From the NCBI RefSeq assembly GCF_900100665.1, contig NZ_FNCS01000020.1, positions 1 to 52,923 of the forward strand: a stretch of DNA of 52,923 bases, read 5' to 3'. The notes below the pieces were generated by a model. That model worked only from the letters and a program-made list of their open reading frames with translations, searched no databases and had not been told where the DNA came from. Below are positions 18,149 through 36,497 of this stretch, one piece after another. A program made the position numbers and the translations under genes. The DNA comes from Pelagibacterium luteolum. Its GTDB lineage: Bacteria; Pseudomonadota; Alphaproteobacteria; Rhizobiales; Devosiaceae. Numbering within the stretch: position 1 is the stretch's first letter; each line of letters begins with the position of its first letter.

Positions 18149-18161
18149 GGAGATCTGATCG

Positions 18162-18443: not shown

Positions 18444-18547
18444 GGCCACTCCCGGCTTCGGCTGGGCAAAGTGCCTCCTTTACCCGGTCGAGGGGCGGGC
18501 CTTGAGCCTGCCCCGAACCGACCGCGCAACCTCAGAGGTGAATTTAA

Positions 18548-19006
18548 ATGAAGACCTTGCAACCGACCGCGATGCGCGCGGCTGGCGCTGATTACGTTCG
18601 CACCTATCATCACGTCACCGTCGACAATGATGTGACGATGGACGACATTCTGCGCCCCAATTTCTGGGCCCACCACACTGGCACGCTACGCGCCGGCGAT
18701 CTGGTTGACGTTCTGTCGAAAGACATGTCGCTGGACGTGCAGCTGCGCGTGATCGGTAAGGGTGTCGGCTACGTCAACCTTCGGCCTCGGATGGCCTATG
18801 TCGCCAAGGACCGCGACGAAACGATTGTCGCAGAGAACGGCGATGACCTGCCGGACATTCCGGACAATTACACGGTGACCTTCACGCCGATGACGAAATG
18901 GCGGGTCCACACCAAACAGCCGCACAACGAAATCCAGCGCGATCTGCCTTCGAAAAAGGCCGCGATCGAGGCGGCGATTGAACACAGCGCCAAGGCCAAC
19001 GGCTAA
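18548..19006 (+). CDS. Probable second head-surface protein (152 aa)
   Basis: Begins MKTLQPTAMRAAGADYVRTY. The central beta-rich part (GTLRAGDLVDVLSKDMSLDV, QLRVIGKGVGYVNLRP) lines up with the 93-residue protein just upstream. The C-terminal part holds YTVTFTPMTKWRVHTKQPHN and a Lys/Ala-rich helix (KKAAIEAAIEHSAKANG). A hairpin (GGGGCGGGC/GCCTGCCCC, 18492-18514) lies in the 104-bp gap before it. It is proposed as a minor head or head-completion protein; function is not proven. Confidence 0.6.
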   Translation: MKTLQPTAMRAAGADYVRTYHHVTVDNDVTMDDILRPNFWAHHTGTLRAGDLVDVLSKDMSLDVQLRVIGKGVGYVNLRPRMAYVAKDRDETIVAENGDDLPDIPDNYTVTFTPMTKWRVHTKQPHNEIQRDLPSKKAAIEAAIEHSAKANG

Positions 19007-19026
19007 GGCGAAAGCGAGGGCTGAGC

Positions 19027-19641
19027 ATGGCAACGGATCGTCTGCGCCAGTACAATGGCGCTCTGCAAATGCTGGGGCAGACCCGCATTGCCAATCTTTC
19101 GGTCAATGAGAAATCCCGCCGCGAACTGGATGCGGCATGGGATGAGGCGAATGAATACATGCTCTCAAAGGGGCTGTGGAATTTCGCCATTCGATCGTCG
19201 GAAATGGCTTTTGACGATGATGTCGAGCCGGTCAGTGGATATCGTTACGCGATCAAAATCCCTGACGACTTCGTGCGGATTGTGACGCTCTCTGCGACCG
19301 GCTTTGCCGATCAGGAAATGGAGCGGTATCAGAACGAAAACGGCTACTGGTTTTGCGATTATAGCGAGGCATTCCTGCGCTATGTCTCATACGACGCTGA
19401 ATATGGGATGGACCTCGGGAAGTGGCCCCCGGCATTTGCTCTGGCCCATCAAGCCTATCTCGCTTTCAAGTCTGGCCTGCCGGTCACTGGCGACAAGGGC
19501 ACGCGCAACGACGTATGGGGGCTGCACAAGCGGCTTCTGAGCGAGGCGAAGGTGAGTGACGCCATCGAGCAGCCTGTTGCCCGCCGTCCGGCTGGGCGTT
19601 GGGCCAGAGCGCGTTACGGGCGCCACGGGAGCCAACGCTAA
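19027..19641 (+). CDS. Tail tubular protein A-like (T7 gp11-type adaptor)
   Basis: 204 residues. It has the gatekeeper/adaptor pattern of T7 gp11-like proteins: ALQMLGQTRIANLSVNEKSR near the start, the helix pair with LDAAWDEANEYMLSKGLWNF, a beta part with KIPDDFVRIVTL and GYWFCDYSEAFLRYVS, and a helical end (PPAFALAHQAYLAFKSGLPV). It joins the portal to the nozzle. The Arg-rich C-terminus (GRWARARYGRHGSQR) is the expected disordered arm. The next gene overlaps its stop. Confidence 0.83.
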   Translation: MATDRLRQYNGALQMLGQTRIANLSVNEKSRRELDAAWDEANEYMLSKGLWNFAIRSSEMAFDDDVEPVSGYRYAIKIPDDFVRIVTLSATGFADQEMERYQNENGYWFCDYSEAFLRYVSYDAEYGMDLGKWPPAFALAHQAYLAFKSGLPVTGDKGTRNDVWGLHKRLLSEAKVSDAIEQPVARRPAGRWARARYGRHGSQR

Positions 19642-22352: not shown

Positions 22353-22362
22353 CATTCGCGTC

Positions 22363-22725
22363 GTGGCGGTGAGCCGGGCGCAGTTGGCCGAACTGACCGG
22401 CTATGACGTCGATATGCCGATCGCTGGTTATGTAGGGATCCGCGACAATCGCATGTTTGGCTGGGGCGGTCTCGCGTGGGGCGGCGGGCGCTGTTGGCTT
22501 TTCCTGTCCGTTCTCGAAGAGCCCAGCGCTATCGTCGTGTGGCGCTGGGCCAAGCGAATGCTGGTCAAAGCCGTCCAGCTTGGTGAGACCGAAATCTACA
22601 CGCCGCGCGATCGGCAGCATGAAACCTCCGAACGCCTTCTGTCGCGGCTCGGGTTCACCTTCCACGGTATGGAACAAGGCGAGGAAATCTGGCTATGGCA
22701 CCACTCCCAGTCATCGCAGGCATAG
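22363..22725 (+). CDS. GNAT-like phage protein of the tail module (120 aa)
   Basis: The frame is open from before the nozzle stop; GTG 22363 is taken as start, with GTG 22369 also possible, and neither has a strong ribosome site. The product contains YVGIRDNRMFGWGGLAWGGG, a central helix (WAKRMLVKAVQLGETEIYTP) and the ending ERLLSRLGFTFHGMEQGEEI, which is the typical C-terminal strand-helix-strand of GNAT acetyltransferases. The acetyl-CoA loop is weak, so activity is uncertain. It overlaps the next gene by 31 bp. Proteins like this recur in this spot in BPP-1-like phages. Confidence 0.62.
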   Translation: MAVSRAQLAELTGYDVDMPIAGYVGIRDNRMFGWGGLAWGGGRCWLFLSVLEEPSAIVVWRWAKRMLVKAVQLGETEIYTPRDRQHETSERLLSRLGFTFHGMEQGEEIWLWHHSQSSQA

Positions 22726-23192
22726 CCGGGGTTGCCGGTGCCGGCCTTCAAATTGTTGGCACGATGGCGCAAGCGCGTGGGCAGCGCGAAGCTGGAAAAG
22801 CTGCGGAAGAAGACGCCTATTTCGAGGCTGCGCAGCTTGAAGACAACAGCAAGGAAGAGTTTGCCGCCTCTCAGCGCGATGCACTTGAACGTCGTCGCGA
22901 GGGGCGGCTTGCAAACTCAGCCGCACAGGCCCGCGCTGCGGCGTCGGGTGGCGGCGCTGGTGCAGATGCTCCGACGATCATGCGTATCATGGGCGACATC
23001 GCCTCAAGGGCTGAATACGGGGCGCAGGCGGCGCTGTTCGGCGGGGAAAGCCGCCGTGCTGGCATGTTCACTCAAGCTGAGGCTACGCGCCGCACAGGGC
23101 GCTCTCAGCGCCGTGGTTCCGAACTGAGCGCAATGGGCACGATGTTCTCGGGCTTGAGCAGTGGTTTCTCTTCCTTGGCGGGGGCATTTTAG
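22695..23192 (+). CDS. Internal virion protein (T7 gp14-like), 165 aa
   Basis: Begins with a hydrophobic helix MAPLPVIAGIAGVAGAGLQI and continues as Ala/Gly/Arg-rich amphipathic helices (AARGQREAGK-type segments, ASQRDALERRREGRLANS) ending in GTMFSGLSSGFSSLAGAF. This is the usual make-up of the smallest ejection protein, which inserts into the outer membrane during DNA entry. It is directly followed by the two large internal proteins, giving the standard gp14-gp15-gp16 order. Confidence 0.75.
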   Translation: MAPLPVIAGIAGVAGAGLQIVGTMAQARGQREAGKAAEEDAYFEAAQLEDNSKEEFAASQRDALERRREGRLANSAAQARAAASGGGAGADAPTIMRIMGDIASRAEYGAQAALFGGESRRAGMFTQAEATRRTGRSQRRGSELSAMGTMFSGLSSGFSSLAGAF

Positions 23193-25829
23193 ATGGCGCG
23201 TATTCCAACAGCGGCGGAAATCTCCGGGCCGGGCTCATTGCGGACGGGGCGTTCCATTGCGCGCCAAGACACGACGGCGGAAGGGCGCGGGCTGGCCGAT
23301 TTTGGCAGCGGATTGCGTCAAGCCGGGGCGGTGGCGGTCGCATTCGGGGAGCAGGAGCGGCAGAAGGCCCTTGCGCTCGAGCTTAGCAAGGCCGATGCCC
23401 AGTACAATAGCGGCCTGATCGGCATCGAAAACGGCTTCAATCAGGATGGGAATTATTCGACCTGGGGGCAGCGAGCGCAGCAGTCGACGCAAGAGCTACT
23501 CTCAAGCTCGGCAAACCTGATTTCCGACCCGGAAGCGCGCCAGTTGTGGCTGCTGGACAAGCAGGCGCACGCCACTGGCTTTGTGGATCGCATCGGGGAT
23601 CGTTCCTTTGCCCGCGTGCAAGAGCAGCAAGTGGTCGATCTCGGGCAGGCGATCGAAACGAACTACAATATCCTGACCGACCCCAGCCGGCCAGAAGAAG
23701 AGCGCGAACGCGCACGCCTCGACATCGAAGGGGCAATTGCGGTCAATGAGCAGACGGGACTACTGGCGCCCGGAACGGCTCAAGAGTGGCGCGAAACCTT
23801 CCTGCAGCAAGGCGACTATGCTCTGGGGCAGAACGCTGTCGATTCCGGGGAATTTACCGGCCCGCTGCCCCAAGGTGATACGGCGGCAATCCTGCGGTCG
23901 TTTGAAGGGTTCCAGACAAGCCCTTATTGGGACGTGAACGCCTATCGCATTGGCTATGGCTCGGACACGATTACGCGGGCCGATGGCTCTGTGGTTCGGG
24001 TGCAGCCTGGAATGATGGTGACGCGGGAAGATGCGGAGCGCGATCTGGCCCGGCGCATTCGGGAATTTGAGCAAGTCGCGGTGCGCAATGTCGGCGTGGA
24101 CGCCTGGGCAGCATTGCCGCCCCAGACGCGCGCTGCGCTGACATCGGTTACCTACAACTATGGCGAAATCCCTCCCCGGATTCGGGACGCGGTGCGCGGT
24201 GGTGATCCCGTGGCGATTGCAGATGCTGTGGCCTCGCTCCAAAACGACAATGGCGGCGTCAATCGGGAACGCCGGCTAAAAGAGGCTGCGATCATTCGGG
24301 GCGAAGGCAATCCGGAATGGTATCAGCGCTTGCCGCCAACGCAGCGGATCGCCATTGACCAGATGGCCGCGTCGCGCCAGTCGCAGCAGGCGTCTGCGGC
24401 ACAGGCTCGTGCGCAATCGGAATATGCGGCACACAAGGGCAGCATTGAGCTTGGCATCCGGACGCGGGACATCGTGTCCGAACAGCAGATCCTCAACGAT
24501 GCGATGCTGACCGACAGCGATAAAGCAACGCTGTTGAATACGCTGCGCACTGAGGTCGGGCGCGTAAGCGATGCGCAGAATTTTCTGGCGAGCTGGCAGG
24601 CAGGGCAAAGTGCCGGGCTCAACCCCTTCAACTCGGACAACCGGCGGTTGGTTGATGATGTCTTCGATGAGTTGCAAACGGCTGTGCCGGCAGAGCAACG
24701 AGAAGCGGCCACAACCCAGCTTATCGCTGACACTGGCGTCGTGCCGTCTCAGGCCATTGCGGACGTGCGGCAGGGGCTTACGGGCACAGATACGGCTGCG
24801 GTAACGCGTGCGCTGCAGACTGCTGCGATGCTGACCGATACCGCCCCGCAAGGGCTAATGGCTGTGGAGCACGGCAGGGAAGTGCGCGACGCTGCCGACA
24901 TGTACAACGCTCTAGTCAACGGTCGTGGCTTCACTGCCGAACAGGCGGCGCAGCAATACATGCGGATGAATGACCCGGCGCAGCAGCAGCGTGTCGAGGT
25001 TTTGCAGGCGCGCTGGACTGAGGATCGCAAGTCGCTTGGCCCGCAAGATATCGTGCAAGAGTTCGGGGCCGGGTTCCTCGGGTTCGGCGCTGTGTCCACA
25101 GGCGTGACGATCGAACAGCAAGAGGCAGTCTTGGCGGACTATATGTCCTTTGCCGAGGACGCCTATCTGCAGGCGAACGGTGATATCGCTGTGACCAAGC
25201 AACTGGCCATCCAGGAGATGCGGCGGACCTATGGGGTGAGCAGCGTTTCGGGCAATGCCGCACTGATGAAATTCCCCCCCGAGAATTTCTTTCCATCCGT
25301 TGCCGGCAGTCATGACTATCTGCGCGATATCGTCATGCGTGATGCGCGATCAATCGAAGCGACATCTCAGAATGCCATGCTGGTGGGAACGACAGAAACG
25401 GCGCAGGACGTCTCGGCAGGCATGGTGCCGCGATATAACCTCTACTACCAGACGCCTGACGGGGTCTGGAACATGGCGCCGCAAATGTTCACGCTGGGCG
25501 ATGAGGTCCAGCAGCTCCAGACACTCCAGAGCCAGCGAAACCAGCTTGAAGGCGAACGCGCCCGGGTGATGGTTCAGTGGCGCCAAGACGTTCAGAGCGG
25601 CATGCCGTTGGAAGAGGCGCAGGCGCGGGCCGAGGCCGCTGATGCAGCGCTGGTCGAGCAGATGAATGCCCTCGGCGGGCAGGCCAGCGAAGTGCGGGGC
25701 AATGGTCCTGTCGAAGAGAGCAGCGATTATTTCATTCCCAACGATATGGCCGAAAGACTGATGCAAGAGCAGGAGAACTTTGTGCCGGGACAGCCGATTG
25801 ACTGGTTTAATCAGCAGGGGCGCAACTAA
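23193..25829 (+). CDS. Internal virion protein with an embedded GH24-like lysozyme domain
   Basis: 878 residues, in the place of T7 gp15. Residues about 229-372 are a lysozyme-like domain: Glu238 in LRSFEGF, Asp247 nine residues later in YWDVNAYRIGYGSD, then DAERDLARRIREFEQVAV, the ALTSVTYNYG motif and RRLKEAAII. In T4-type lysozymes a Thr precedes the IGxG; here it is Arg252. The rest is long helical, Gln/Ala-rich ejection protein. It would make a local hole in peptidoglycan for DNA entry. It overlaps the next gene by one base. Confidence 0.82.
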   Translation: MARIPTAAEISGPGSLRTGRSIARQDTTAEGRGLADFGSGLRQAGAVAVAFGEQERQKALALELSKADAQYNSGLIGIENGFNQDGNYSTWGQRAQQSTQELLSSSANLISDPEARQLWLLDKQAHATGFVDRIGDRSFARVQEQQVVDLGQAIETNYNILTDPSRPEEERERARLDIEGAIAVNEQTGLLAPGTAQEWRETFLQQGDYALGQNAVDSGEFTGPLPQGDTAAILRSFEGFQTSPYWDVNAYRIGYGSDTITRADGSVVRVQPGMMVTREDAERDLARRIREFEQVAVRNVGVDAWAALPPQTRAALTSVTYNYGEIPPRIRDAVRGGDPVAIADAVASLQNDNGGVNRERRLKEAAIIRGEGNPEWYQRLPPTQRIAIDQMAASRQSQQASAAQARAQSEYAAHKGSIELGIRTRDIVSEQQILNDAMLTDSDKATLLNTLRTEVGRVSDAQNFLASWQAGQSAGLNPFNSDNRRLVDDVFDELQTAVPAEQREAATTQLIADTGVVPSQAIADVRQGLTGTDTAAVTRALQTAAMLTDTAPQGLMAVEHGREVRDAADMYNALVNGRGFTAEQAAQQYMRMNDPAQQQRVEVLQARWTEDRKSLGPQDIVQEFGAGFLGFGAVSTGVTIEQQEAVLADYMSFAEDAYLQANGDIAVTKQLAIQEMRRTYGVSSVSGNAALMKFPPENFFPSVAGSHDYLRDIVMRDARSIEATSQNAMLVGTTETAQDVSAGMVPRYNLYYQTPDGVWNMAPQMFTLGDEVQQLQTLQSQRNQLEGERARVMVQWRQDVQSGMPLEEAQARAEAADAALVEQMNALGGQASEVRGNGPVEESSDYFIPNDMAERLMQEQENFVPGQPIDWFNQQGRN

Positions 25830-28800
25830 TGGCCCTGGTTGATCGCCCTCAAACTCGGATCAGCAATCCCAACGACATGACGGGGATTGACCTGCGGCCG
25901 CCCTCGGAAGAGGTGGACGTTGGACCGGGTGCTTTGATCGGCGCCGCGTTCCGGATGGAAAACCCTCTTGTGTCGATGTTGTCGCGGCAATCTGCGGGCG
26001 GGCCGGTCGATCCTGACTTTGATTGGTGGGGCTCGATTTCAGGCACGCCATATGAGCCATACAGTGCGCGCTTTGCAAACGTCTTCAACCGGGCGCAGGC
26101 CGATGCGCTGAAAGCCCAGATCGACAGGGAGAATGCTGACCGTCGCACGATCGATGCTGCGGGCGGATGGGGTCTTCTGGCTTCAATAGGTGCTGGCGTG
26201 TTCTCGCCCGAGATACTTCTGCCCGGTGGCAACATCTATCGCGGGGTAAGGGCTGGGCAGGCCGCGGCACGCACAGCGGTCTCTACAGCGACGTGGGCGG
26301 GCGTTGGGGCCACTACAGCGGAACTTGCGCTCCAGTCCACTCAGGAGACGCGCACGGCCACGGAAAGCGCCTTGAACATCGGCGGGTCTGTGATCCTGGG
26401 CGGCGCGCTCGGCGGTGGCATCTCTGCAGCGGTTTCGCGCATGGATTGGGCGCGGTTTTCAGCGGCGGCTGATGCTGATCTGCGCCAGCCCTTTGATGGC
26501 GTCGACCCACAGCGCGCCAATGAGGATGCGCTGCAGGGCGAATTGCAGCGACGACTGGCCAGCAACGAGACGGCCAGTGATGCTGGCGCTGCGGCGCGAA
26601 CCGTCGACACACTCGAAGACCTGACCATTGCCGGGCGTGCTGCCCAGTTCACGGGGCAGGCGTTTGGCGGGCTCAATCCTGTCTTGCGGACGCTGCAAAG
26701 CCCGTCCGTTGAGGTGCGCAACATTGCCACTCGCCTGTATGAAAACCCGATCTACATGCGCAAGAACATGGAAGGGCAAGCCTCGGCACCGGGCGTCGAA
26801 ACACTGGTCAAGGAATACACGCAAGGCCATGTGGCGCGTGCGATCGAGCAACACCAAAATATCTATCGCGAGTTCCGGCAGAATGGCGGGACCATGAGCC
26901 AGTCCGATTTCAATCGGGCAGTGGGCCAAGCTATGCGGCGATCTGATACCGCGGCGGATCCCCGCGTGTCCAAGGCAGCGGAAGCGTGGCGGCGCGATGT
27001 GTTCAATCCGCTGAAAGAGCAGGCGATCGAGGCGGGGCTGCTGCCGGCCGATGTGTCGGTCTCGACAGCGGAATCGTATTTCAGCCGGGTTTACAATGTG
27101 CCGATGATGATTGCGCAAGAGCAGCGCTTCAAAGGCATTGTGCGAAACTGGGCCGATGAGGTGATTTCCTCGCTGCAGTTCAAGTCGGAAGAGATCACAA
27201 TCGGCAACAGGATTGTTGAGGCTGAAACGGCAGCGGATCAATTCTCGGCGGCTCGGCAGCGGTTCGAGACGTCGACGCAAAACCTTGAAGCGCGAGAAGC
27301 GCGCCGGGCCGGGATGGTTCGCAATCTTGAAGAAACAGAGCTGTCGCTTATGCAGGCTCGTGAAGAGGCCCCGCCGCCTGAGCTGCTGCGCATCCTGCGC
27401 AATGCCGGTGACACTCAGGACGCCATCACTGCCGTGCGGGAAGCGCGCCAGGCGCGGCGCTCTGGCGCCAATCGCAGCTATCGCGAACGCTTCCCCGTTC
27501 TAAGCCTGCTGCGCGACCGTGGCGGGGTTCGGGTGGGTACGCCACTTGATGCGGATCTTCGGGCGCTGGGCGTCACTCCCCAGTCGCATCCTGGGCTATT
27601 CCGCAAGGCTGGCGGACGAAGCGATGTCGATAATCTGGTCTGGGGGGAAGACGAGATTTTGACACAGAACCTCAACCCGATCGAGAACGGCTATCTCGCG
27701 CCCAATGACATCATGGAAGCAATTCGCGCCGAAATTGGCGGCACTCCGCTGCGCACGGAAGACCAACGGATGATGGATCAGAACGTTGATGCGCTGGTCG
27801 ACTATGCCGATTCGTGGTTGGATCAGGTCGGGCTGGGTCGCAATGCGTCGGTCAAGGAGGTGCGGGACTATCTGCGCACCATCACCGCGGCAAATCGCCA
27901 ATATGACGACATGATTGCCCGTGTCGATCGGCTTGAGGCTGAGCTTCAAAAGTTCGACACTGCGACCGATCCGCTGGTCAATGAGCGCATTGTGCGGGAA
28001 GAGGCCATGATCGAGGCCGAAACCCAGATGCAGGCGCTCAATGAGGAAATCCTGCAGTACCAGGATATCGCGCGCGCTTCGCCGAATGTCGGCATCATCC
28101 TCGACTATGCGACTGCCAAACGTGACCTGGGCAAACAGCGGATCAGGCAGAGCGCTGTGGCGCGCCGTGTCCAAGCGCTAAAGCGTGTCGAGCAGCGCGG
28201 GCGCCTCAACGATGATTTGGCCCGCGAATTGCGTCTGAAGACAGACGAGCTGACACGGTTCGATCCTGCCATCAATCGGCTGGAGGCCAAAGTTGAGAAG
28301 CTGCAGCCGATGCTGCCCAAGATGCGCCAGGAGCTTCCTGATTTCGTCTCGGATGCCGACCGGCAAGACTACGTCAACGAGATCGTCAACAACATCTATG
28401 ACACGCTGTTGGGTCGCAATGCGGACGGGGAAATCCCGCGCGATATCGTGGCTGCGACGCGCGGGCCGCTGAAAGAGCGGACGTTCAACATTCCTGACCG
28501 CATGATTGAGGACTTTCTTGAGAGTGACGTGGAGAAGGTGGCCCGGCGCTATGCCCGTGTGATGGCGGCTGATGTCGAGCTGACGCGGACATTTGGCCGG
28601 GCGGATATGAAAGAGCAGATCGATGCTGTGCGGGCTGAGTACACGACGGCACGCGAACGCGTTGAGGCTGACCTTGACGATGCTGGCAATCCCAAAAATA
28701 CGCCGCGCGCCCAGATCGAAAAGCGCCTCCGTGAGCTGACTAATCGGGAAAAAACGGACGTGCAGGATATCCGCGCGCTGCGCGACCTGATCCGGGGCAC

Positions 28801-30052
28801 ATACAAGCGCGAAGAGAACGCCAGCAACTACGCTCGAGTGGCGCGCGTCGCTGGCACACTCAACTATCTGCGGGCGCTGGGCGGTGTGACCATCTCGTCG
28901 CTGTCCGACGTCTCGCGCCATGTGATGGTCCACGGGCTGGGGCCGGTGATGAATGACGGGCTGGTGCCGATGATCCGAAACCTGAAGGGGTTCAAGATGT
29001 CGGTGCAAGAGGCAAAGACCGCCGGAGCTGTCACTGAACGGCTGCTCAACACAAGGCTGGCGACCTGGGCGGACATCGCTGACCCTTATTCCGCCTCGTC
29101 GCCTTTTGAGCGGTTTATGGACAATACCGCGGCAGTGTTCTCCAAACTCAACGGCCTTGTGTTCTGGAACGACTTTCAGAAGAGCTTTGCGTCGGTGCTG
29201 ACCCAGAGCCGCATCCTGCGCGGTTCCACCGACTATGCCAGCCTGGGCAAGCGCGAGCGGGCTTATCTTGCCTATCTCGGGATTGATGCGGGCATGGCAG
29301 AGCGGATTGGGCGTCAATTCCAGCGCCATGGCACGACAGAGGACGGCGATATTCGTGTGGCCGGCACTGACGACTGGGATGACATCGAGGCGCGACGCAT
29401 CTACCGCGCTGCAATCAACAAGGACGTCGACACAACGATTGTGACGCGCGGTGTTGGTGATGTGCCGCTATTCATGCACACGCCCACGGGGCGGCTCGTG
29501 GGGCAGTTCAAGAGCTTTGCGTTGGCCAGTAACCAGCGAATGCTGATGCGGGGCTTGCAGGAGCGGCCATCAGGATTTGTCGCCGGCACGATGATGGCCG
29601 CGACTGTCGGCATGATGATTTACTGGCTCAAGTCGGTGGAATCGAACCGCATGGATGATATATCCGACAATCCGGGCCGATGGATCGCAGAAGGGCTCGA
29701 CCGATCAGGCATCTTCGCCTTGGCCTTCGAGGTCAACAATACTGTGGAAAAGGCTTTCGGCGTCGGTGCGTATGGGGCGCTCTCGGCATTGTTCCCGAGC
29801 TCGGATCAGGACGGCAAGTCGAGCCGCTACATTATGCGCTCGACGGCAGCAGGCTTCGCGGGGCCAACGGCTGATTTCATTGATACGGCGGTGCGTGCTG
29901 TGGCCGCGATCAAGGACACGACAAGCGGCGACGGGCTCACCGAAGGCGATATCAACGCCATTCGCAGGCTGGCGCCGTTTGCGTCTCTTCCTGGCATTCG
30001 ATCATTCGTTGAGTATGTCGGCATTCCGGCAGTTGTCGAAGGCGTAAACTAG
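25829..30052 (+). CDS. Very large internal virion/ejection protein (T7 gp16-like), 1407 aa
   Basis: The largest gene. It starts MALVDRPQTRISNPNDMTGI, has a Gly/Ala-rich membrane-active region at about 110-210 (GGWGLLASIGAGVFSPEILL, LNIGGSVILGGALGGGISAA), long coiled-coil stretches in the middle (RFETSTQNLEAREARRAGMV, VDRLEAELQKF, IRQSAVARRVQALKRVEQRG), and a hydrophobic C-terminal segment (GTMMAATVGMMIYWLKSV). Ejected with the genome, it is expected to build the channel through the cytoplasmic membrane. No transglycosylase motif is apparent here; that activity seems to lie in the preceding protein. Confidence 0.82.
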   Translation: MALVDRPQTRISNPNDMTGIDLRPPSEEVDVGPGALIGAAFRMENPLVSMLSRQSAGGPVDPDFDWWGSISGTPYEPYSARFANVFNRAQADALKAQIDRENADRRTIDAAGGWGLLASIGAGVFSPEILLPGGNIYRGVRAGQAAARTAVSTATWAGVGATTAELALQSTQETRTATESALNIGGSVILGGALGGGISAAVSRMDWARFSAAADADLRQPFDGVDPQRANEDALQGELQRRLASNETASDAGAAARTVDTLEDLTIAGRAAQFTGQAFGGLNPVLRTLQSPSVEVRNIATRLYENPIYMRKNMEGQASAPGVETLVKEYTQGHVARAIEQHQNIYREFRQNGGTMSQSDFNRAVGQAMRRSDTAADPRVSKAAEAWRRDVFNPLKEQAIEAGLLPADVSVSTAESYFSRVYNVPMMIAQEQRFKGIVRNWADEVISSLQFKSEEITIGNRIVEAETAADQFSAARQRFETSTQNLEAREARRAGMVRNLEETELSLMQAREEAPPPELLRILRNAGDTQDAITAVREARQARRSGANRSYRERFPVLSLLRDRGGVRVGTPLDADLRALGVTPQSHPGLFRKAGGRSDVDNLVWGEDEILTQNLNPIENGYLAPNDIMEAIRAEIGGTPLRTEDQRMMDQNVDALVDYADSWLDQVGLGRNASVKEVRDYLRTITAANRQYDDMIARVDRLEAELQKFDTATDPLVNERIVREEAMIEAETQMQALNEEILQYQDIARASPNVGIILDYATAKRDLGKQRIRQSAVARRVQALKRVEQRGRLNDDLARELRLKTDELTRFDPAINRLEAKVEKLQPMLPKMRQELPDFVSDADRQDYVNEIVNNIYDTLLGRNADGEIPRDIVAATRGPLKERTFNIPDRMIEDFLESDVEKVARRYARVMAADVELTRTFGRADMKEQIDAVRAEYTTARERVEADLDDAGNPKNTPRAQIEKRLRELTNREKTDVQDIRALRDLIRGTYKREENASNYARVARVAGTLNYLRALGGVTISSLSDVSRHVMVHGLGPVMNDGLVPMIRNLKGFKMSVQEAKTAGAVTERLLNTRLATWADIADPYSASSPFERFMDNTAAVFSKLNGLVFWNDFQKSFASVLTQSRILRGSTDYASLGKRERAYLAYLGIDAGMAERIGRQFQRHGTTEDGDIRVAGTDDWDDIEARRIYRAAINKDVDTTIVTRGVGDVPLFMHTPTGRLVGQFKSFALASNQRMLMRGLQERPSGFVAGTMMAATVGMMIYWLKSVESNRMDDISDNPGRWIAEGLDRSGIFALAFEVNNTVEKAFGVGAYGALSALFPSSDQDGKSSRYIMRSTAAGFAGPTADFIDTAVRAVAAIKDTTSGDGLTEGDINAIRRLAPFASLPGIRSFVEYVGIPAVVEGVN

Positions 30053-30083
30053 AGGCATAATCCTGCAAGTTAGAGGATCTGTG

Positions 30084-30233
30084 ATGACTGACTTGCTGGC
30101 GACGCTTGTGATTTTCGGCCTGACGTTATGGGCCGTCAAACACGTATCGAACGCCTATGGCATAGCCTGGGGTGTCGCGACGTTTGTTGCCGTTCCAGTA
30201 GCGGCTGGCGCGGGGCTTGTCCTGCTGGGATAG
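30084..30233 (+). CDS. Small two-segment membrane protein (49 aa)
   Basis: ATG 30084 with AGAGGA 6 bases upstream. The product is MTDLLATLVIFGLTLWAVKH, a short polar link, then AWGVATFVAVPVAAGAGLVL. Two hydrophobic segments of 15-20 residues fit a holin-like or small envelope protein. It stands alone between the ejection protein and tail fibre, 4.4 kb before the endolysin, and is followed by a terminator. Holin is only one possibility. Confidence 0.6.
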   Translation: MTDLLATLVIFGLTLWAVKHVSNAYGIAWGVATFVAVPVAAGAGLVLLG

Positions 30234-30264
30234 CCCAACCACCACATCATTAATTGATCCCCCA

Positions 30265-30297
30265 AGGGCTGCTCTCGCGAGTGGCCCTTTTTCTTTG
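30265..30297 (+). terminator. Terminator before the tail fibre gene
   Basis: AGGGCTGCTC (30265-30274) pairs with GAGTGGCCCT (30279-30288) using two G-U pairs, followed by TTTTCTTT. It separates the virion core operon from the tail fibre, whose ribosome site GGAG follows at 30297-30300. Confidence 0.75.
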
Positions 30298-30308
30298 GAG
30301 CAAATCGC

Positions 30309-32795
30309 ATGACGCAAATCGATCGCCTGGACGGGCTGTCGTCCTCGACCGCCATCAAGGGACCGTGCCGGGTGGCGACCTCGGCCAACATTACGCTGTC
30401 CGATTTACAGACGGTCGATGGCGTTGTGCTGGCCGGTGGCGATCGCGTGCTGGTGCGTGCGCAGACCGATGCCAAGCAAAACGGCATCTATGTCGTTGAT
30501 ACAGGAGAATGGCGGCGGGCTCGGGACTTCGCCAGCAATCGTGATATCCGCAAGGGGACGCGCATCGTTGTGACGTCTGGCACGACCTATGCGACCTCTG
30601 AATGGATTGCTACCACAGATGACCCCGTTGTGTTGGGCGCATCCTCTATCGGCTTCGCTCAGATATTCTTTTCCACGGGTTCGGATGTAACGATAAATTC
30701 CCCGGGGCTGGTCACTAAGCTTACCCTCCCAGACCTCAACGCGGTTACCCCGCCGGATGAAACCTTTGGCGGTGTCGTCCTCAATGATCCCGACGCCGAT
30801 AACAATGGTTATTACTATCGCTCGGCCAATACGTGGGTTCGTGGGCTCGGATTTCCTAAAGCATATGGGATTGAAGAGATTGTTAGCCTCGGCGGCACGG
30901 CAAACGCTCAAACAGCCACTTTAGAGCCGGGCCTCTCTCCTGACGACGTGCGTGTGTTTTTTGCGCTGGTGGCCACTGACAACACCGGATCCATGACGCT
31001 GTCGGTCGGCGGCGAGACCCCGCGCCCTGTCCTCAACGTCGCCGGCAATCCTCTCTCTGCAGGCGAATGGACCGGTGTCGTGCTGTTCGTGCGCGACGGG
31101 AATGACTATCGGCTAATTATTGATGCGGGGGCTGCAGCCAGCGCGGCGCAGAGTGCGAGTGAGGCGGGTGATAGCGCCCTCTCCGCTGGTACCGACGCCG
31201 ATCGAGCCGAAGCAGCCCGCGATGCCGCACTTGGGGCAGTGCCCAACGAGTTCACGCCCAACCGAACCACGCTCAAGGCTCTAGATACCGATACGATTAC
31301 CCACGTTTACCTTACCGAACGGGGCCGTGAGGGGCAATTTATCTGGCGCACTGGCGACTACAGCGATGAGGTGGCGGCAGACACTGCCGAGGGCACTTAC
31401 ATTGAGGCTGACGCCGTTGCGGCAACGCACGGTGCGTGGGTGCGATCCAGGGAAACCTACACCGTCCTGATATTTGGAGCGGACCCTACTGGCGTTATGC
31501 CGTCAAATGACGCCTTCTCGATCGCGGCCAAAGTTTCACCTGCGCAGAATGAGGTGGAAGGCCCGCGCCGAAGCTTCCCTGCTGCAGATATCGCTCATGT
31601 CCGTATCCCACCAGGGGTCTACGAACTGACGGAACTGATCGATGTTGGCGGAAAGGAAATCTATTGGATTTTAGAGCCGGGCGCGCGTGTCATTGGTGCA
31701 GATTTCCTCAATGGGCATTTGATCCGCCATGATGGCACTGTCCTGAACAAAACACAGCCTTACGGCATCGTCTATGGAGCAGTTGGCACCGCTGCCAGGA
31801 TCAGCGGTTCACTCGATGACAACCCTGAGATCACGGGGCTGAACGATGTAAATCTGTTGGGTGTTTATCCAACGCGAGATGCGGTCGCTATTTTTGCGCA
31901 GGCGGAGAGCCCCCCTGCGCTCGTCACGGTCGAGGCCCCCTCCTACACCGCCACCAGAATAACTCCGGTGTCTCCACTCTCCGCTGACGTTGTAAAGCGA
32001 CTGCGCCGCGGCATGATCATCGATACCATCAGCAGTCCGGTTTATAGCGGCGCTATAAGCACATGGGCGGAGGACGGTTCATGGGTCGAGGTCGAAGATG
32101 GCTGGTTTGAAGTCACAGGGTCAGTCACAGAGCCCACCACACCGCCTGACGGCGCCGACGCCATATTCAATTCTTTCACCAAGATTTGGGCATTCAACGG
32201 GAATACAATCTTAAGAGAAAATAGCCCTGCAAGGGTCGCCTGCACCATGGAGCTTGGGTTCATCAACCAGACTTCCACGCCCATGACGGACGGACTCACT
32301 CCAGGGGAGCCATACGCATGGATATACGATGCGGTAGCATTGGGTGGGGCCGGCTCAAAAGCGACTGCTGGCTATATAGCCAGAGAAAACATGTTCTTCG
32401 GCTTCCAGAGCGCTGGTCCGGACATCGCGTTCTCAGCCAAACAGAACAATTCACTCGTTTTCTCGGTCAGTGGTGCAAATGGCAGCATTGAGATGGGTTC
32501 GAGGCTCGTCGCTGATCCAAGCACTATAGATTTTCACACATCCGGCACCGACAACGACTACGATACCAGGTTAATAGCTTTCGGCGGCACCTCCACTGCC
32601 GGGGAGGGCACATTGCGGCTAGACGCGGCCACCTTTGACATAAATTCTTCAGGAGGCTTGAGAGTGAACGGAACCAAGGTTTTGGGGCCGCAGCAAGGGG
32701 TTGTCAATAACTGCACCGATGACCCGGCCAATATACGAGACGTGGTGAACGACCTACTCTCAAAACTCAGAGCCCACGGATTGATAGCGACATGA
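30309..32795 (+). CDS. Tail fibre/tail spike protein
   Basis: 828 residues. Residues about 1-115 form the virion-attachment module typical of phage fibres (VLVRAQTDAKQNGIYVVDTG, WRRARDFASN). A Gly/Ser/Ala linker (AASAAQSASEAGDSALSAGT) precedes a spike neck at about 310-400 (VYLTERGREGQFIWRTGDYS, VLIFGADPTGVMPSNDAFSI), the usual entry into a pectate-lyase-like beta-helix. The body has parallel-strand repeats; the end (NNCTDDPANIRDVVNDLL) is a short helical trimer cap. It binds host surface glycan and may degrade it; catalytic residues are not evident. The later third is AT-richer than its start. Confidence 0.82.
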   Translation: MTQIDRLDGLSSSTAIKGPCRVATSANITLSDLQTVDGVVLAGGDRVLVRAQTDAKQNGIYVVDTGEWRRARDFASNRDIRKGTRIVVTSGTTYATSEWIATTDDPVVLGASSIGFAQIFFSTGSDVTINSPGLVTKLTLPDLNAVTPPDETFGGVVLNDPDADNNGYYYRSANTWVRGLGFPKAYGIEEIVSLGGTANAQTATLEPGLSPDDVRVFFALVATDNTGSMTLSVGGETPRPVLNVAGNPLSAGEWTGVVLFVRDGNDYRLIIDAGAAASAAQSASEAGDSALSAGTDADRAEAARDAALGAVPNEFTPNRTTLKALDTDTITHVYLTERGREGQFIWRTGDYSDEVAADTAEGTYIEADAVAATHGAWVRSRETYTVLIFGADPTGVMPSNDAFSIAAKVSPAQNEVEGPRRSFPAADIAHVRIPPGVYELTELIDVGGKEIYWILEPGARVIGADFLNGHLIRHDGTVLNKTQPYGIVYGAVGTAARISGSLDDNPEITGLNDVNLLGVYPTRDAVAIFAQAESPPALVTVEAPSYTATRITPVSPLSADVVKRLRRGMIIDTISSPVYSGAISTWAEDGSWVEVEDGWFEVTGSVTEPTTPPDGADAIFNSFTKIWAFNGNTILRENSPARVACTMELGFINQTSTPMTDGLTPGEPYAWIYDAVALGGAGSKATAGYIARENMFFGFQSAGPDIAFSAKQNNSLVFSVSGANGSIEMGSRLVADPSTIDFHTSGTDNDYDTRLIAFGGTSTAGEGTLRLDAATFDINSSGGLRVNGTKVLGPQQGVVNNCTDDPANIRDVVNDLLSKLRAHGLIAT

Positions 32796-32950
32796 CCCCA
32801 GAACTAGCTAGGGCAACGTTGCAATTTTTGCAGCGTATCCAGCTGCAAGGCGCAGAAGTGCCAGCGTTTAACGCGGTTTGCGAAACGCCACCGTTACAAT
32901 GCCGCACCCCGAAGACGATCAAGACGATAGAAGTGCGGCTAACCAGATGA
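32792..32950 (+). CDS. Small hypothetical protein coupled to the tail fibre (52 aa)
   Basis: ATG 32792 overlaps the fibre stop as ATGA. The product MTPELARATLQFLQRIQLQG continues AEVPAFNAVCETPPLQC and ends basic. The helix followed by QLxGAEVPAF is a pattern I associate with short phage proteins encoded after tail fibre genes. Coupling suggests a fibre assembly or accessory role. Short length keeps confidence moderate. Confidence 0.55.
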   Translation: MTPELARATLQFLQRIQLQGAEVPAFNAVCETPPLQCRTPKTIKTIEVRLTR

Positions 32951-33045
32951 CCCGCGCCGACTAATGGAGTGGCATCGACAAATGACATTGGTCTTTGAAT
33001 TTCTCTCGGTAGAAATATACTGACGCGAGTGCTGCTCTCTTCGGG

Positions 33046-34530
33046 TTAGCTCGGCGCGGGCCACTTGGAAAACAGCATTCGCATGTCGGGCACTGGTGGC
33101 AGGCTAGTCTCGACATGCTTGACCAGCGGAACCGGGAATCGCTCTTCAAACAAGCGGTCTATCACTCTGTCCGAAAAACAATGGCTCTGCTCCCCAGAGA
33201 TAAGAGCCATTTTTACGAACGGGAAGCCGTCATCTAGCAGACGATCCCAATCCCATACCGTTGGGTTCCGCATGTGTCGATGAGCGGGGAAGATCGCGCC
33301 GCAGCTTACCCCGGCGCTGCGTAGCCGAGGGGCTAAAGTGATCTCATACTCTCGGATAACCTGGCTTTTCTCCGGGAGATTTACGATTTCACGGAAAAAG
33401 TCACGCGTCGCAGGGGACGCGAGCGCTTCGGACTTTAGTGAAAGATAGTAACTTTGCAGATGTTCAGCGTACTCAAAGTTCGAGGTTAAGCCTACTAACC
33501 CGCAGGAAGATGTTCGTATCTCCTGGGTAAGCTTGTGCAAGTTGTCTGTGCGTACTGGCCCGCAAATGCTGTCATTGGTCAGCAGGAGCTCATCGCCTTC
33601 TAACAGCCATGGAAGAGTCTTGACCACATGCGCCCAAGCAGCGAAGTCATACCCTACGTTTTCCCTTACGAAGACGTTCTTACAAGCGAACTGCAACATT
33701 GATGGGACTTCTACGTGCCGTACATCAGCCGCGACGATGAGATGCACGGCATATCCCGACTCATTCAGGGCAGTTGAGAGGCGGGTAACGTGCGGCTTGA
33801 TGTTACCGTTTGCGCTGTGGGTAACGAGTAAAGCGTTTCGGTGGTATGCCTGCTGTGAAGCTATAAGTCTGTCGATCCAAGCAGATTCCACGCGCTCGCG
33901 GGGCTGCCCTGGTCGCGATCTGCTAACCCCATAGCCCTTGCCAACCCCTTCGCTTAGGTAGTGGAGGAGGGGGTTTGTAGTCCCTGTCTTGTACTGTTCA
34001 ACATAGGTTTTGGAACAAAACCTCGGGGATGGGTCGAAGCCCTCATGACCATGCAGGATGAAGTGCTTAAGTGGCTCCATCCCGTTTAGGTGATCGCCAT
34101 ATTCGCGCAGATAAAAGTCCGTTTCAAAGTATGGGTTTGGGTGAAACCCTTTGGCGGAACCTTTATCGAGGAAATGGAACAGCGGGTTGTCCGCTCTCGC
34201 TTCTGCATACCGATCAGCATACCAATCCGTGCGGAACATGTAGCTTGCCCAGCGCCCTTCTTTGGCGCCACGGCTAAGGTAGTGCTCCTCTGGGTCAAGC
34301 CCTGCTTCCGCGATGTCGGGGTAAAAGTCTAGATAGAAGTCGGGGTCGAAGAGCTTGCTTTCCCGCAACCGTTGTAGGTCTGCGTCGGAAACCGGGATGA
34401 ACTTATACGGGCGCCCCTCTTGGTGCCCGTGATTGAGCCAATGGCTCGTTGCGTCAACACCTGCGCGTGCAACGTCTGGATTGAGACGCAAATAAATCTC
34501 AGGATCGAAGTCTACCGGCAGTCTCTGCAT
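33046..34530 (-). CDS. RgpF-like surface-glycan synthesis protein, prophage cargo
   Basis: 494 residues from ATG 34530 (GGGAG about 6 bases upstream). Residues about 8-204 hold five repeats of roughly 36 residues, each with a FDPxxYL-type start, an NPDVA/YPDIA centre and an HYLxxGxxEGR-type end. Residues about 232-450 match the RgpF (rhamnan synthesis F) glycosyltransferase-like family: ALLVTHSANGNIKPHV, VRENVGYDFAAWAH (288-301), ELLLTNDSICGP (314-325), GLVGLTSNFEYAEHLQSYY and PHRH-like AHRHMRNPTVWDWD. Cytoplasmic; no membrane segment. It faces against the late genes and a sampled 60-base line (33481-33540) is 50 percent G+C against 65 percent in the endolysin gene (34681-34740), so it looks acquired. 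Likely changes the host polysaccharide in the lysogen. Confidence 0.8.
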   Translation of the reverse strand: MQRLPVDFDPEIYLRLNPDVARAGVDATSHWLNHGHQEGRPYKFIPVSDADLQRLRESKLFDPDFYLDFYPDIAEAGLDPEEHYLSRGAKEGRWASYMFRTDWYADRYAEARADNPLFHFLDKGSAKGFHPNPYFETDFYLREYGDHLNGMEPLKHFILHGHEGFDPSPRFCSKTYVEQYKTGTTNPLLHYLSEGVGKGYGVSRSRPGQPRERVESAWIDRLIASQQAYHRNALLVTHSANGNIKPHVTRLSTALNESGYAVHLIVAADVRHVEVPSMLQFACKNVFVRENVGYDFAAWAHVVKTLPWLLEGDELLLTNDSICGPVRTDNLHKLTQEIRTSSCGLVGLTSNFEYAEHLQSYYLSLKSEALASPATRDFFREIVNLPEKSQVIREYEITLAPRLRSAGVSCGAIFPAHRHMRNPTVWDWDRLLDDGFPFVKMALISGEQSHCFSDRVIDRLFEERFPVPLVKHVETSLPPVPDMRMLFSKWPAPS

Positions 34531-34558
34531 ACCCACTCCCAAATTGGCAGTCCTGTAA

Positions 34559-34564
34559 ATAGTA
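34559..34564 (-). promoter_or_regulatory. Candidate -10 box for the RgpF-like cargo gene
   Basis: TACTAT on the minus strand lies 29 bp upstream of the ATG, in a local AT-rich stretch. A matching -35 is not clear, so this is tentative. It would let the cargo gene be expressed from the silent prophage independently of the late genes. Confidence 0.3.
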
Positions 34565-34633
34565 CAAAAGCGGGATCGTGAGAAGGACTACTTCCACACC
34601 CCACCCCGATCTAATCAACCATAGGTGACATCC

Positions 34634-35410
34634 ATGAACAGCGCGTTTTTCGACGCGGTGCGCGCTTCCGTGTTCGGAGGGCGCATGACGCAGGCACAGG
34701 TGGACGGCACCATTGCCTTGCTGGAGGCCGGGAAACGCTATGGCGTGACCGACCGGCACCACATGGCCAATGTCCTTGCACAAGTTTTCCACGAGACAGG
34801 GCAGAACATGCTCGGGATCAAGGAAACCGTCATGCCCTCGCACAAGGACAAGAACCCGTCCGATGCGGAGGTTATCCGCCGCCTCGACCGCGCTTTCGCA
34901 GCCGGTCAGTTGCCATGGGTCAAAACCCCATATTGGCGGCAAGGGTGGTTCGGTCGCGGGCCAATCATGCTCACCCATGAGAACAACTATCGCAAGATGG
35001 GCAAGGCCATCGGCGTCGATCTGGTAGCGAACCCAAATCTGGCCATGGACCGCAACATTGGCGCATCCATCGCCGTGGTCGGCATGAGGGATGGCATGTT
35101 CACCGGGCGCAAGCTCTCGGACTATGCGTTCCCCGGCGCACTGGACGCGGCTGTTGCATCAAACCCCCGGCGCATCGTCAACGGGCAGGACGGCACAGAC
35201 AAGCTCGTAGCCGACTATCACCGCAAGTTCCATGCGGCACTGACACATGCGGGCTGGAGCGTAGCAAGCCCCGCACAGCCGTCTAAGCCCAAGCCCGCCC
35301 CAGCACCCTCGCCAATCACTCCAGAGCAGCCCAACGGCTCCGCTGGCGCAGCGTTGGCCATTATCGCGGCGATCCTCGCCGCTGTCTCCTACTTCATCTT
35401 TGGTCGCTGA
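34634..35410 (+). CDS. GH19-like endolysin with a C-terminal membrane anchor
   Basis: 258 residues from ATG 34634 (AGGTGA 6 bases before). The catalytic domain spans about 1-205 with the general acid Glu in LAQVFHETGQNML, then IKETVMPSH, the GH19 motif WFGRGPIMLTHENNYRKMGK and DLVANPNLAMD. A Pro/Lys/Ala-rich linker (PSKPKPAPAPSPITPEQPN) leads to a terminal hydrophobic helix ALAIIAAILAAVSYFIFGR. It cleaves peptidoglycan at lysis. The tail anchor, unlike an N-terminal SAR signal, would put the enzyme on the cytoplasmic face until a pore or inversion event. The two following genes are membrane proteins. Confidence 0.85.
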   Translation: MNSAFFDAVRASVFGGRMTQAQVDGTIALLEAGKRYGVTDRHHMANVLAQVFHETGQNMLGIKETVMPSHKDKNPSDAEVIRRLDRAFAAGQLPWVKTPYWRQGWFGRGPIMLTHENNYRKMGKAIGVDLVANPNLAMDRNIGASIAVVGMRDGMFTGRKLSDYAFPGALDAAVASNPRRIVNGQDGTDKLVADYHRKFHAALTHAGWSVASPAQPSKPKPAPAPSPITPEQPNGSAGAALAIIAAILAAVSYFIFGR

Positions 35411-35422
35411 AAGGAAAGCACC

Positions 35423-35842
35423 ATGTCGCCAATCCTCATCAACACCCTCATCGAGCATCTGCTTGTGCCGTTCGTCATTCTGCCATTCGTGGCGTGGATC
35501 GCTGCTCGCATCCATCAATGGACGGGCAAGGAAGTCGAGGCGCGTCACCGCGAGGCCCTGCAATCAGCGCTCCAGAACGGCGTGCTCTATGCCATCGACC
35601 TCTTCATCGAACGTGGTGGAAAGATAGACGTCACCGATCCGAACCTGATGGGTTCGCTTCTGGCCGACGCCAAGGACTATGTGTTCGACAGCGTGCCCGA
35701 TGCGATCAAGCACTTCCGCCTGGACGATTTCAGCCTTGAGAAGTTGCTTCGACCGAAGCTTCCCACCTTCACCGACGCCGAGGCGCTTGCGATGAATAAC
35801 GCCGCGACGGGACACAATCAGACGCACATCCCGCGCCGCTGA
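35423..35842 (+). CDS. Lysis-cassette protein with one N-terminal membrane segment (139 aa)
   Basis: ATG 35423 with AAAGGAAAG before it. Residues about 8-28 are hydrophobic (IEHLLVPFVILPFVAWIAA), followed by a soluble helical region (EVEARHREALQSALQNGVLY) and an Ala/Asn-rich tail. It lies 12 bp after the endolysin. A holin or antiholin-type role is plausible; similar layouts are found in phage lysis cassettes of alphaproteobacteria. No spanin lipobox is seen. Confidence 0.6.
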   Translation: MSPILINTLIEHLLVPFVILPFVAWIAARIHQWTGKEVEARHREALQSALQNGVLYAIDLFIERGGKIDVTDPNLMGSLLADAKDYVFDSVPDAIKHFRLDDFSLEKLLRPKLPTFTDAEALAMNNAATGHNQTHIPRR

Positions 35843-35884
35843 CCCTCGCCCTGCCTGCCCACCCCTCAACGTGACGGGGGTCTT

Positions 35885-36160
35885 ATGACACTCAAAGACG
35901 ACGAGCCGTTCTCGGCCATACAACTGGCGCAGCTCAAGATGGTGGTCCGAGAGGCCGTCAAAGAGGAAATGGCCGATGCTGGGCTTCGCATTGACGACGC
36001 CAGTCACCAGGACGAAGCCAAGGAGGATTTCCGTTTCGTGCGGAGGCTCAGGAAGGCCGTTGACGGGGCGACGGGCAAGATCGGGGCGGCAGTGGTGCTC
36101 GGGTTGACCAGCGGCGTTCTATGGTTGATCTATCAGGGCATCAGGATTGCTGTGAAGTGA
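35885..36160 (+). CDS. Holin-like protein with one C-terminal membrane segment (91 aa)
   Basis: The soluble N-terminal part (AQLKMVVREAVKEEMADAGL, EAKEDFRFVRRLRKAVDG) is charged and helical. The C-terminal segment GAAVVLGLTSGVLWLIYQGI spans the membrane. The layout fits small phage holins that put a cytoplasmic helix before a single transmembrane end. It sits in the lysis cassette with a GTGA overlap to the next gene. Membrane topology is deduced from sequence only. Confidence 0.65.
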   Translation: MTLKDDEPFSAIQLAQLKMVVREAVKEEMADAGLRIDDASHQDEAKEDFRFVRRLRKAVDGATGKIGAAVVLGLTSGVLWLIYQGIRIAVK

Positions 36161-36321
36161 TCCGATGCCCAAAATGCGATGCCGATGTGCCCGACTGGAA
36201 CGCTCATAGGGTGTCTGGGCGGCTGCTCATCACCTTCCGGCACTGCGATCGATCTTACACCGCTGAGGCTGATTTCGTCGTTACAGAGATTCGGGAAGGG
36301 TTGAGGCTGGTGAAGCGGTAG
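36157..36321 (+). CDS. Small zinc-ribbon-like protein at the prophage right end (54 aa)
   Basis: GTG 36157 overlaps the previous stop (GTGA). The product MIRCPKCDADVPDWNAHRVS has CPxC, then GRLLITFRHCDRSYTAEADF, which gives three Cys and neighbouring His, fitting a small incomplete zinc ribbon. The remaining sequence is beta-rich. As the last gene before the right attachment site it could be a late accessory or moron. Family not recognised. Confidence 0.5.
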   Translation: MIRCPKCDADVPDWNAHRVSGRLLITFRHCDRSYTAEADFVVTEIREGLRLVKR

Positions 36322-36344
36322 GGTGTGGTCATCATGACCATACC
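36322..36344. repeat. Near-perfect inverted repeat at the prophage right end
   Basis: TGGTCAT-C-ATGACCA at 36326-36340 is perfect, and the outer GGT/ACC also pair. There is no T tract. It lies between the last gene and the candidate arm sites, so it may bind a dimeric protein such as Xis or a regulator. Confidence 0.45.
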
Positions 36345-36365
36345 TTCGACAACGCCGCCCAAAAA

Positions 36366-36414
36366 GGTTAGACGTTTTGCCGCTAAGTCATTGATTTGGG
36401 ATGATGGGTTAGTC
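36366..36414. promoter_or_regulatory. Candidate right-arm integrase sites
   Basis: GGTTAGACGTTTTGCC at 36366-36381 and GGTTAGTCGTTTTGCG at 36407-36422 are direct repeats 41 bp apart, 46-94 bp from the right core. The GGTTAGAC word is also found twice at the left arm. They fit arm-type binding sites of the integrase. Confidence 0.5.
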
Positions 36415-36459
36415 GTTTTGCGAAAGGCTAAGTGCTTGGAAACGCTTGCGGACTGTTGC

Positions 36460-36497
36460 AGTCAGAGTCCGTGGGTCTACCGTTAACCTATTCCCCA
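36460..36497. repeat. attR core, 38-bp direct repeat
   Basis: Perfect copy of 2800-2837, carrying the 5' half of tRNA-Gln (minus strand) without the 3' half. The host DNA to its right, from 36498, was originally directly upstream of tRNA-Gln and should contain its native promoter. Confidence 0.93.

What the first reader, a model, noticed from the sequence alone, without database searches (positions are those of the whole stretch)
33046..34564. Reversed RgpF-like glycan gene next to the tail spike: likely lysogenic conversion of the surface polysaccharide
The gene is on the opposite strand to all late genes, AT-richer, with its own possible promoter, and sits between receptor-binding protein and lysis genes, the classic cargo position. 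It combines five FDPxxYL...NPDVA...EGR repeats with an RgpF-type domain (VRENVGYDFAAWAH, LLLTNDSICGP). Changing the polysaccharide that the neighbouring spike recognises would block superinfection and free progeny from debris. The repeat-RgpF fusion on a prophage is, to my knowledge, not a described conversion system.
Basis: partly seen in the sequence, partly recalled or inferred. Interest (0 to 1): 0.72.

Follow-up and report, generated by a model that had tools for sequence, protein, structure and literature searches.

The report
Prophage sugar-coat gene beside tail spike
A dormant virus in a bacterium carries a gene for a sugar-attaching enzyme right next to the gene for its own tail spike, and some related dormant viruses keep other surface-sugar enzymes in the same place, so the gene probably changes the host's coat to keep rival viruses off.

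Summary
A 494-aa gene (33046-34530, minus) lies in a prophage bounded by a 38-bp tRNA-Gln repeat, opposite to the late genes, between tail spike and GH19 endolysin. It is AT-richer and joins FDPxxYL...EGR repeats (three clear, two degenerate) to a Pfam RgpF domain that models as a GT-A glycosyltransferase. No promoter was found. Lysogenic conversion is supported by comparison, not by function. Of 81 non-redundant related loci, 33 showed a lysis gene; 8 of these 33 hold a sugar-modifying gene in that interval (glycosyltransferase 4, acyltransferase 2, sulfotransferase 1, methyltransferase 1). Neorhizobium SOG26 (one of the 8) and an IMG/VR provirus found through RgpF carry the same repeat-RgpF fusion there. 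On a tree the window's RgpF pairs with a chromosomal fusion, not with other phage copies, suggesting separate captures. Phages such as P22 and BTP1 work in a like manner; this enzyme type in this slot I did not find in print. Against: 20 of 33 intervals showed no such gene, and expression, substrate and glycan are unknown. Verdict: new variant of a known kind.

The parts
2800..36497 (.). Prophage, bounded by a 38-bp direct repeat (attL 2800-2837, attR 36460-36497) lying in tRNA-Gln 2764-2837(-)
2881..3957 (-). Tyrosine integrase
   Evidence: Pfam Phage_integrase 7e-13
5943..6710 (-). S24/HTH repressor
   Evidence: Pfam Peptidase_S24 1e-15, HTH_3 1e-6
12584..13963 (+). Terminase large subunit
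   Evidence: PHROG 979, 9e-65
14217..15857 (+). Portal / head-tail adaptor (podovirus type)
   Evidence: PHROG 332, 1e-60; best matches 27-29% to Pelagibacter phage connectors
25829..30052 (+). 1407-aa protein, probable internal virion protein (by position and size); marker used to find related prophages
   Evidence: homologues
30309..32795 (+). Tail spike / fibre (828 aa)
   Evidence: PHROG tail-fibre and head-decoration matches at the N-terminus; residues 403-785 and 426-779 32-33% identical to annotated tailspikes H41 and H42
33046..34530 (-). Repeat + RgpF-domain glycosyltransferase (494 aa), the finding
33931..34509 (-). Repeat region (residues 8-200)
33169..33711 (-). RgpF (PF05045) match, profile 12-207 of 503
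34625..35410 (+). GH19-type endolysin
   Evidence: Pfam Glyco_hydro_19 4e-9; PHROG 181 endolysin 1e-30

Best explanation
The gene is a lysogenic-conversion gene in a variable cargo slot of a temperate podovirus-like lineage found mainly in Hyphomicrobiales. Shown: it sits between spike and endolysin, opposite to the late genes, and that interval in some related prophages holds other surface-sugar enzymes, including the same repeat-RgpF fusion in two others. Shown by sequence and a medium-confidence model: the C-terminal domain is of the RgpF family with a GT-A glycosyltransferase fold. Inferred: being outside the late operon it is transcribed in the quiet lysogen; the repeats dock the enzyme to the host's glycan machinery; the enzyme adds or changes a sugar (rhamnose is the family precedent) on LPS, capsule or EPS; the changed glycan is no longer bound by the neighbouring spike, so sibling phages cannot re-adsorb.
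For: RgpF domain above the Pfam cut-off. GT-A fold: model pLDDT 70, pTM 0.74; of the 50 PDB matches listed, all but three (nucleotide-sugar pyrophosphorylases or thymidylyltransferase) are glycosyltransferases (ABO transferases, glycogenin, ArnC, chondroitin synthase and others; E 3e-6 to 5e-5, TM by query 0.26-0.42). In 33 of 81 non-redundant loci with a recognised lysis gene, 8 of 33 hold a Pfam-identified sugar-modifying gene in the interval. Neorhizobium sp. SOG26 (L080): repeat-RgpF-2xGT2, 31% to P0001 over residues 135-445, E 6e-28. L169: repeat-RgpF-GT2, 897 aa, plus acyltransferase-3, opposite strand, between spike and lysis-position gene. Devosia sp. A8/3-2 (L085/L064): GT-B opposite the late genes, beside a 10-TM protein on the late strand, between spike and endolysin. 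Control on 47 whole virus records (45 of the 72, plus L169 and L170): without the two found through RgpF, all four GT2-bearing records have it within 6.3 kb after the marker (15% of the bases; post hoc p about 5e-4). Only RgpF gene found in the draft host genome. BTP1 gtrC, convergent with its tailspike gene, blocks infection and lowers adsorption (PMC4413052, passages); S. mutans rgp mutants, rgpF among them, lose phage adsorption (PMC12178566, passages).
Against: No expression data, and no consensus promoter. In 20 of 33 intervals I found neither a sugar enzyme nor an unknown minus-strand gene, so the slot is not dedicated. Acyltransferase-3 also lies elsewhere: in 2 of the 4 unbiased records that have it, and a second copy in L169. 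Pfam RgpF matches only 12-207 of 503 positions. The window's virus record has no GT2 or acyltransferase-3 gene, so no such companion. TM-scores of the fold matches are low. Kapi1 genes, one of them chosen for its place beside the tail spike gene, did not singly change LPS (PMC8787464, passages). What the spike binds is unknown.
Confidence: 0.68

Rival explanations
1. Host-fitness moron: the enzyme alters EPS, capsule or LPS in the lysogen, but what is selected is biofilm, drying resistance or soil/plant interaction, not phage exclusion.
For: The repeats occur on a chromosomal methyltransferase of the same genome (L003) and on an RTX-like protein (L006; by eye); repeat-RgpF fusions exist outside recognised prophages (L016, L022).
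Against: Recurrence beside the spike, with unrelated enzyme classes filling the place, fits receptor change better than one host trait.
Confidence: 0.17
2. Glycosylation of the phage's own spike or other virion proteins by the adjacent enzyme.
For: Gene adjacent to the spike; phage-coded enzymes that modify virion proteins are known (recalled, not searched).
Against: Opposite strand to the late genes; the interval elsewhere also holds acyltransferase-3 genes and, beside a GT-B, a 10-TM protein, which fit membrane-linked glycans better.
Confidence: 0.06
3. Transient, silent passenger gene picked up by recombination, without function.
For: Low GC, no promoter seen, many intervals without such a gene.
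Against: Intact 494-codon frame with family-conserved residues kept; similar fusions kept in two other prophages of the lineage.
Confidence: 0.09

Closest known systems
P22 / BTP1 gtr O-antigen modification beside the tailspike gene (Salmonella)
   Same: Prophage-borne; BTP1 gtr is convergent with the tailspike gene, changes the glycan that the spike binds, and lowers adsorption (PMC4413052, passages).
   Different: The GtrABC make-up (flippase, bactoprenol glycosyltransferase, polytopic GtrC) is recalled; here a single protein without predicted TM segments and no GT2 gene in the window's virus record. Here the other neighbour is the endolysin.
RgpF of streptococcal rhamnose-glucose polysaccharide
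   Same: Pfam family PF05045; RgpF is a rhamnosyltransferase for a glycan that serves as phage receptor, and its mutants lose adsorption (PMC12178566, passages).
   Different: Streptococcal RgpF extends a rhamnose backbone in a Gram-positive; here only profile 12-207 is matched, behind an N-terminal repeat array, on a prophage of an alphaproteobacterium.
Repeat-RgpF fusions in other genomes of the order (L016 in G325, 1557-codon frame; L022 in G217, 1202-codon frame)
   Same: Same repeat family, then RgpF domain; L016 is the nearest on the tree (94/95; 34-36% identity).
   Different: Much longer; L022 adds GT1 and GT2 domains; L016 has about a dozen repeats (by eye). Surroundings not tested for phage genes; G217 has further GT2 genes 6 kb away.
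Pseudomonas phage D3 serotype conversion cassette (recalled; named in the text seen)
   Same: A whole cassette for O-antigen change on a temperate phage, which the Devosia A8/3-2 interval resembles.
   Different: The window carries one enzyme gene only.

Membership tests
Pfam RgpF (PF05045) | Score over the curated cut-off | tested here: met
   65.8 bits against 25
Pfam RgpF (PF05045) | Match over the whole profile | tested here: not met
   12-207 of 503 only; L059, L080 and L060 match the same part
Pfam RgpF (PF05045) | Family-conserved residues (R-x-N-x-G-x-D-F, N-x-S, H-x-x-S, E, K) | tested here: met
   14 invariant columns over 11 sequences, the window protein among them
Pfam RgpF (PF05045) | Rhamnosyl transfer | not testable with these tools
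   -
GT-A glycosyltransferase fold | Structural match to solved GT-A enzymes | tested here: met
   Foldseek: 215 matches with E <= 0.001; of the 50 listed, 47 glycosyltransferases and 3 nucleotide-sugar enzymes; TM by query only 0.26-0.42. That these are GT-A is recalled
Lysogenic (sero)conversion gene | Carried inside a prophage with attachment repeats | tested here: met
Lysogenic (sero)conversion gene | Outside the late operon, beside the spike | tested here: met
Lysogenic (sero)conversion gene | Expressed in the lysogen | not testable with these tools
   no promoter match, not decisive
Lysogenic (sero)conversion gene | Changes surface glycan and phage adsorption | not testable with these tools
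   -
gtrABC cassette | GtrB-type GT2 with GtrA flippase and polytopic GtrC (recalled) | tested here: not met
   no GT2 in the window's virus record (L093); single gene without TM segments. L126 of the lineage does have GT2, methyltransferase and 8-TM protein after its spike

The most novel reading that the evidence does not exclude
A podovirus lineage of Hyphomicrobiales uses the spike-endolysin interval as an exchangeable 'coat-swap' slot, and repeat-RgpF fusions are a conversion enzyme type not yet described: the FDPxxYL repeats would be a docking module that plugs a phage glycosyltransferase into many hosts' glycan machines, letting separately captured enzymes work at once.
Probability: 0.35. 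Interest if true: 0.72.

Novelty: new variant of a known kind. Interest (0 to 1): 0.55.

Why it matters
It would extend phage-driven change of surface sugars, known best to me from enteric bacteria and Pseudomonas, to soil and plant-associated alphaproteobacteria, and gives a simple rule (look between spike and endolysin) for finding receptor-changing genes. Spike and likely counter-enzyme lie side by side, so spike-glycan-enzyme pairs could be tested across several prophages. It also suggests that RgpF-family enzymes, which make phage receptors in streptococci, are carried by phages themselves.

Tried and rejected
Close relatives: none in INPHARED (tblastn E 0.01), only the window's own provirus in IMG/VR, none in the first genome scan. 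Portal, endolysin and terminase searches gave few or distant relatives. PHROGs and NCBIfam gave no family for the protein at the limits used. PDB sequence searches gave nothing convincing. The first AlphaFold job on the whole protein was poor (pLDDT 47) and is not used; the domain alone gave a usable model.

Minus-strand ORFs L079, L090, L162, L096 (both), L101 (327 aa), L076 (259 aa), L071, L127, L128, L078 (231 aa) and L121 (195 aa) were set aside as antisense artefacts, by eye, from arginine-rich look and codon-position GC. L103's methyltransferase-like ORF overlaps its lysis gene and was not counted. L082 and L074 have host-type genes after the spike region (Pfam), L084 likewise by ORF size; not counted. 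L110's GT2/capsule gene is followed by an RTX gene, so its right border is unsure; it is counted in the GT2 control but not among the 33. Methyltransferase-type genes after the spike in L078, L094 and L126 are outside the 33 too.

Rows dropped: of 96 loci were not used in the survey (the window's own L093 and nine with short or partial matches); 86 became 81 after removing near-identical ones; 16 were too short, 32 had no recognised lysis gene, 33 remain. Lysis genes were recognised with seeds of GH19, phage lysozyme, GH108 and a fourth group (cl9) without a Pfam match; 6 of the 33 (L117, L120, L136, L159, L161, L162) rest on that fourth group.

Full report
What is there. The window holds a prophage, 2800-36497, in a tRNA-Gln gene, with a 38-bp repeat at each end. 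It has an integrase and an S24 repressor on the minus strand and a plus-strand region with primase-helicase, terminase, head-tail adaptor, probable internal virion proteins, spike and endolysin. The connector's best matches are 27-29% identical to Pelagibacter phage connectors.

The gene. ORF 33046-34530 (minus, 494 aa) is intact and convergent with the spike gene. Residues 274-454 match Pfam RgpF. The first 200 residues carry three clear and two degenerate copies of a repeat. The same repeat is on a methyltransferase in the host chromosome, on proteins of other genomes and on an RTX-like protein (by eye), so it is a general module rather than a phage invention. No transmembrane segment was predicted by hydropathy. 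The RgpF domain alone models at pLDDT 70, pTM 0.74; 47 of the 50 solved matches listed are glycosyltransferases, at low TM-scores, and the best predicted viral matches include proteins named 'rhamnan synthesis F' in giant viruses. In the draft host genome no other RgpF gene was found; in the family 9 of 136 genomes have one, this one included, and 0 of the 12 other genomes of the same genus.

The slot. A protein of the lineage, the 1407-aa probable virion protein, was used as a marker (alignment A4). It found 24 loci in named genomes and 72 in IMG/VR. Of 96, 86 were used and 81 are non-redundant; 33 of 81 showed a lysis gene downstream. In 8 of 33 the interval holds a Pfam-identified sugar-modifying gene: L080 RgpF+GT2, L085 GT-B, L119 GT61, L105 GT2+GT-B and methyltransferase, L112 and L116 acyltransferase-3, L155 sulfotransferase (4 bits over cut-off), L076 methyltransferase (could have another target). 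In five of these eight such a gene is opposite to the late genes (L085, L119, L112, L116, L076). Five more of 33 have a minus-strand gene without a Pfam family over its cut-off (L100, L107, L134, L136, L161; of L100's two, one was scanned). In the remaining 20 of 33 I saw neither; not every plus-strand ORF there was scanned. Outside the 33, L126 has GT2, methyltransferase and an 8-TM protein in a row, all minus, right after its spike. L053, found by its endolysin, has spike then endolysin with no large gene between.

Same fusion elsewhere. L080 (Neorhizobium sp. SOG26; L129 is near-identical) has two repeats, RgpF and two GT2 domains between spike and endolysin, on the late strand. L169 (IMG/VR 2915646033_000006) has two repeats (by eye), RgpF and GT2, plus an acyltransferase-3, opposite to its late genes, between an 802-aa spike and a lysis-position gene. 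L170 has RgpF on the opposite strand near an 842-aa gene that I read as a tail fibre (32% to the spike of L152, E 9e-10); in the 10.7 kb seen it matches no window protein but RgpF, so it seems to be of another lineage. RgpF also lies beside terminase-like genes (by eye) in L059 and beside a GT2 gene in L060; the 145-kb contig L061 has the same genes. L169 and L170 were found through RgpF and cannot count as unbiased.

Control. 47 whole virus records were searched (45 of the 72, and L169 and L170). GT2 occurs in 5 of 47, each time after the spike. Without the two found through RgpF it is 4 of 45 records, all 4 within 6.3 kb after the marker, an interval that makes up 15% of the bases (post hoc p about 5e-4); for two of the four (L110, L126) no lysis gene was recognised on the far side. 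Acyltransferase-3 occurs in 4 of those 45 records, 2 in the interval and 2 elsewhere; L169 has one in the interval and one elsewhere. RgpF occurs in 4 of 47: the window's own record, L129, L169 and L170.

Descent. In a 23-row tree the window's RgpF pairs with the non-phage fusion L016 (support 94/95, below the tool's mark for firm branches), while L080, L169, L059 and L170 form their own branch (98/93). The window row and several others are long, so this is a lead; it fits separate capture of such enzymes into the same slot.

Mechanism. Shown: place, strand, family, fold type, recurrence. Inferred: transcription in the lysogen, docking by the repeats, sugar donor, target glycan, escape from the spike. 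The nearest worked example is BTP1 GtrC, whose gene is convergent with the tailspike gene; it protects the O-antigen from the spike and lowers adsorption (PMC4413052, passages). RgpF itself makes a phage receptor in Streptococcus mutans (PMC12178566, passages). A caution is Kapi1: candidate genes, one chosen because it lies between spike and integrase, did not singly change LPS (PMC8787464, passages).

In print. Searches (1 paper; 9 listed of 10; 10 listed of 41) for RgpF or rhamnan synthesis with phage or prophage terms listed no paper on a phage-borne RgpF conversion gene; titles and starts of abstracts were seen. Searches (16 of 16 listed; 12 of 63; 1; 3) on conversion in general listed none on this lineage. 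These cover open-access papers only.

Noticed in passing
window 2764-2837: The attachment core is the 5' part of tRNA-Gln (minus strand), rather than the 3' end that I recall as more usual.
   Followed up: no
L064 9521-13149 (Devosia sp. A8/3-2 = L085): Flippase-like pieces (Polysacc_synt 0.22, below cut-off), GT-B and a 10-TM protein between spike and endolysin; several frames broken.
   Followed up: partly
L126 14105-17525: gtr-like row: GT2, methyltransferase and 8-TM protein, minus strand after the spike.
   Followed up: partly
L006 (G030:C8): The FDxxYLxxNPDVA repeats sit at the C-terminus of an RTX-like protein (by eye).
   Followed up: no
L061 7150-8641: 145-kb phage contig with an RgpF-domain gene followed by a GT2 gene.
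   Followed up: no
L059 9119-12301: RgpF plus two GT2 stretches, 1060 aa, beside terminase-like genes (by eye) of another phage contig.
   Followed up: partly
window 36684-37106 (-): CHAP-like ORF (below the Pfam cut-off) just outside attR.
   Followed up: no
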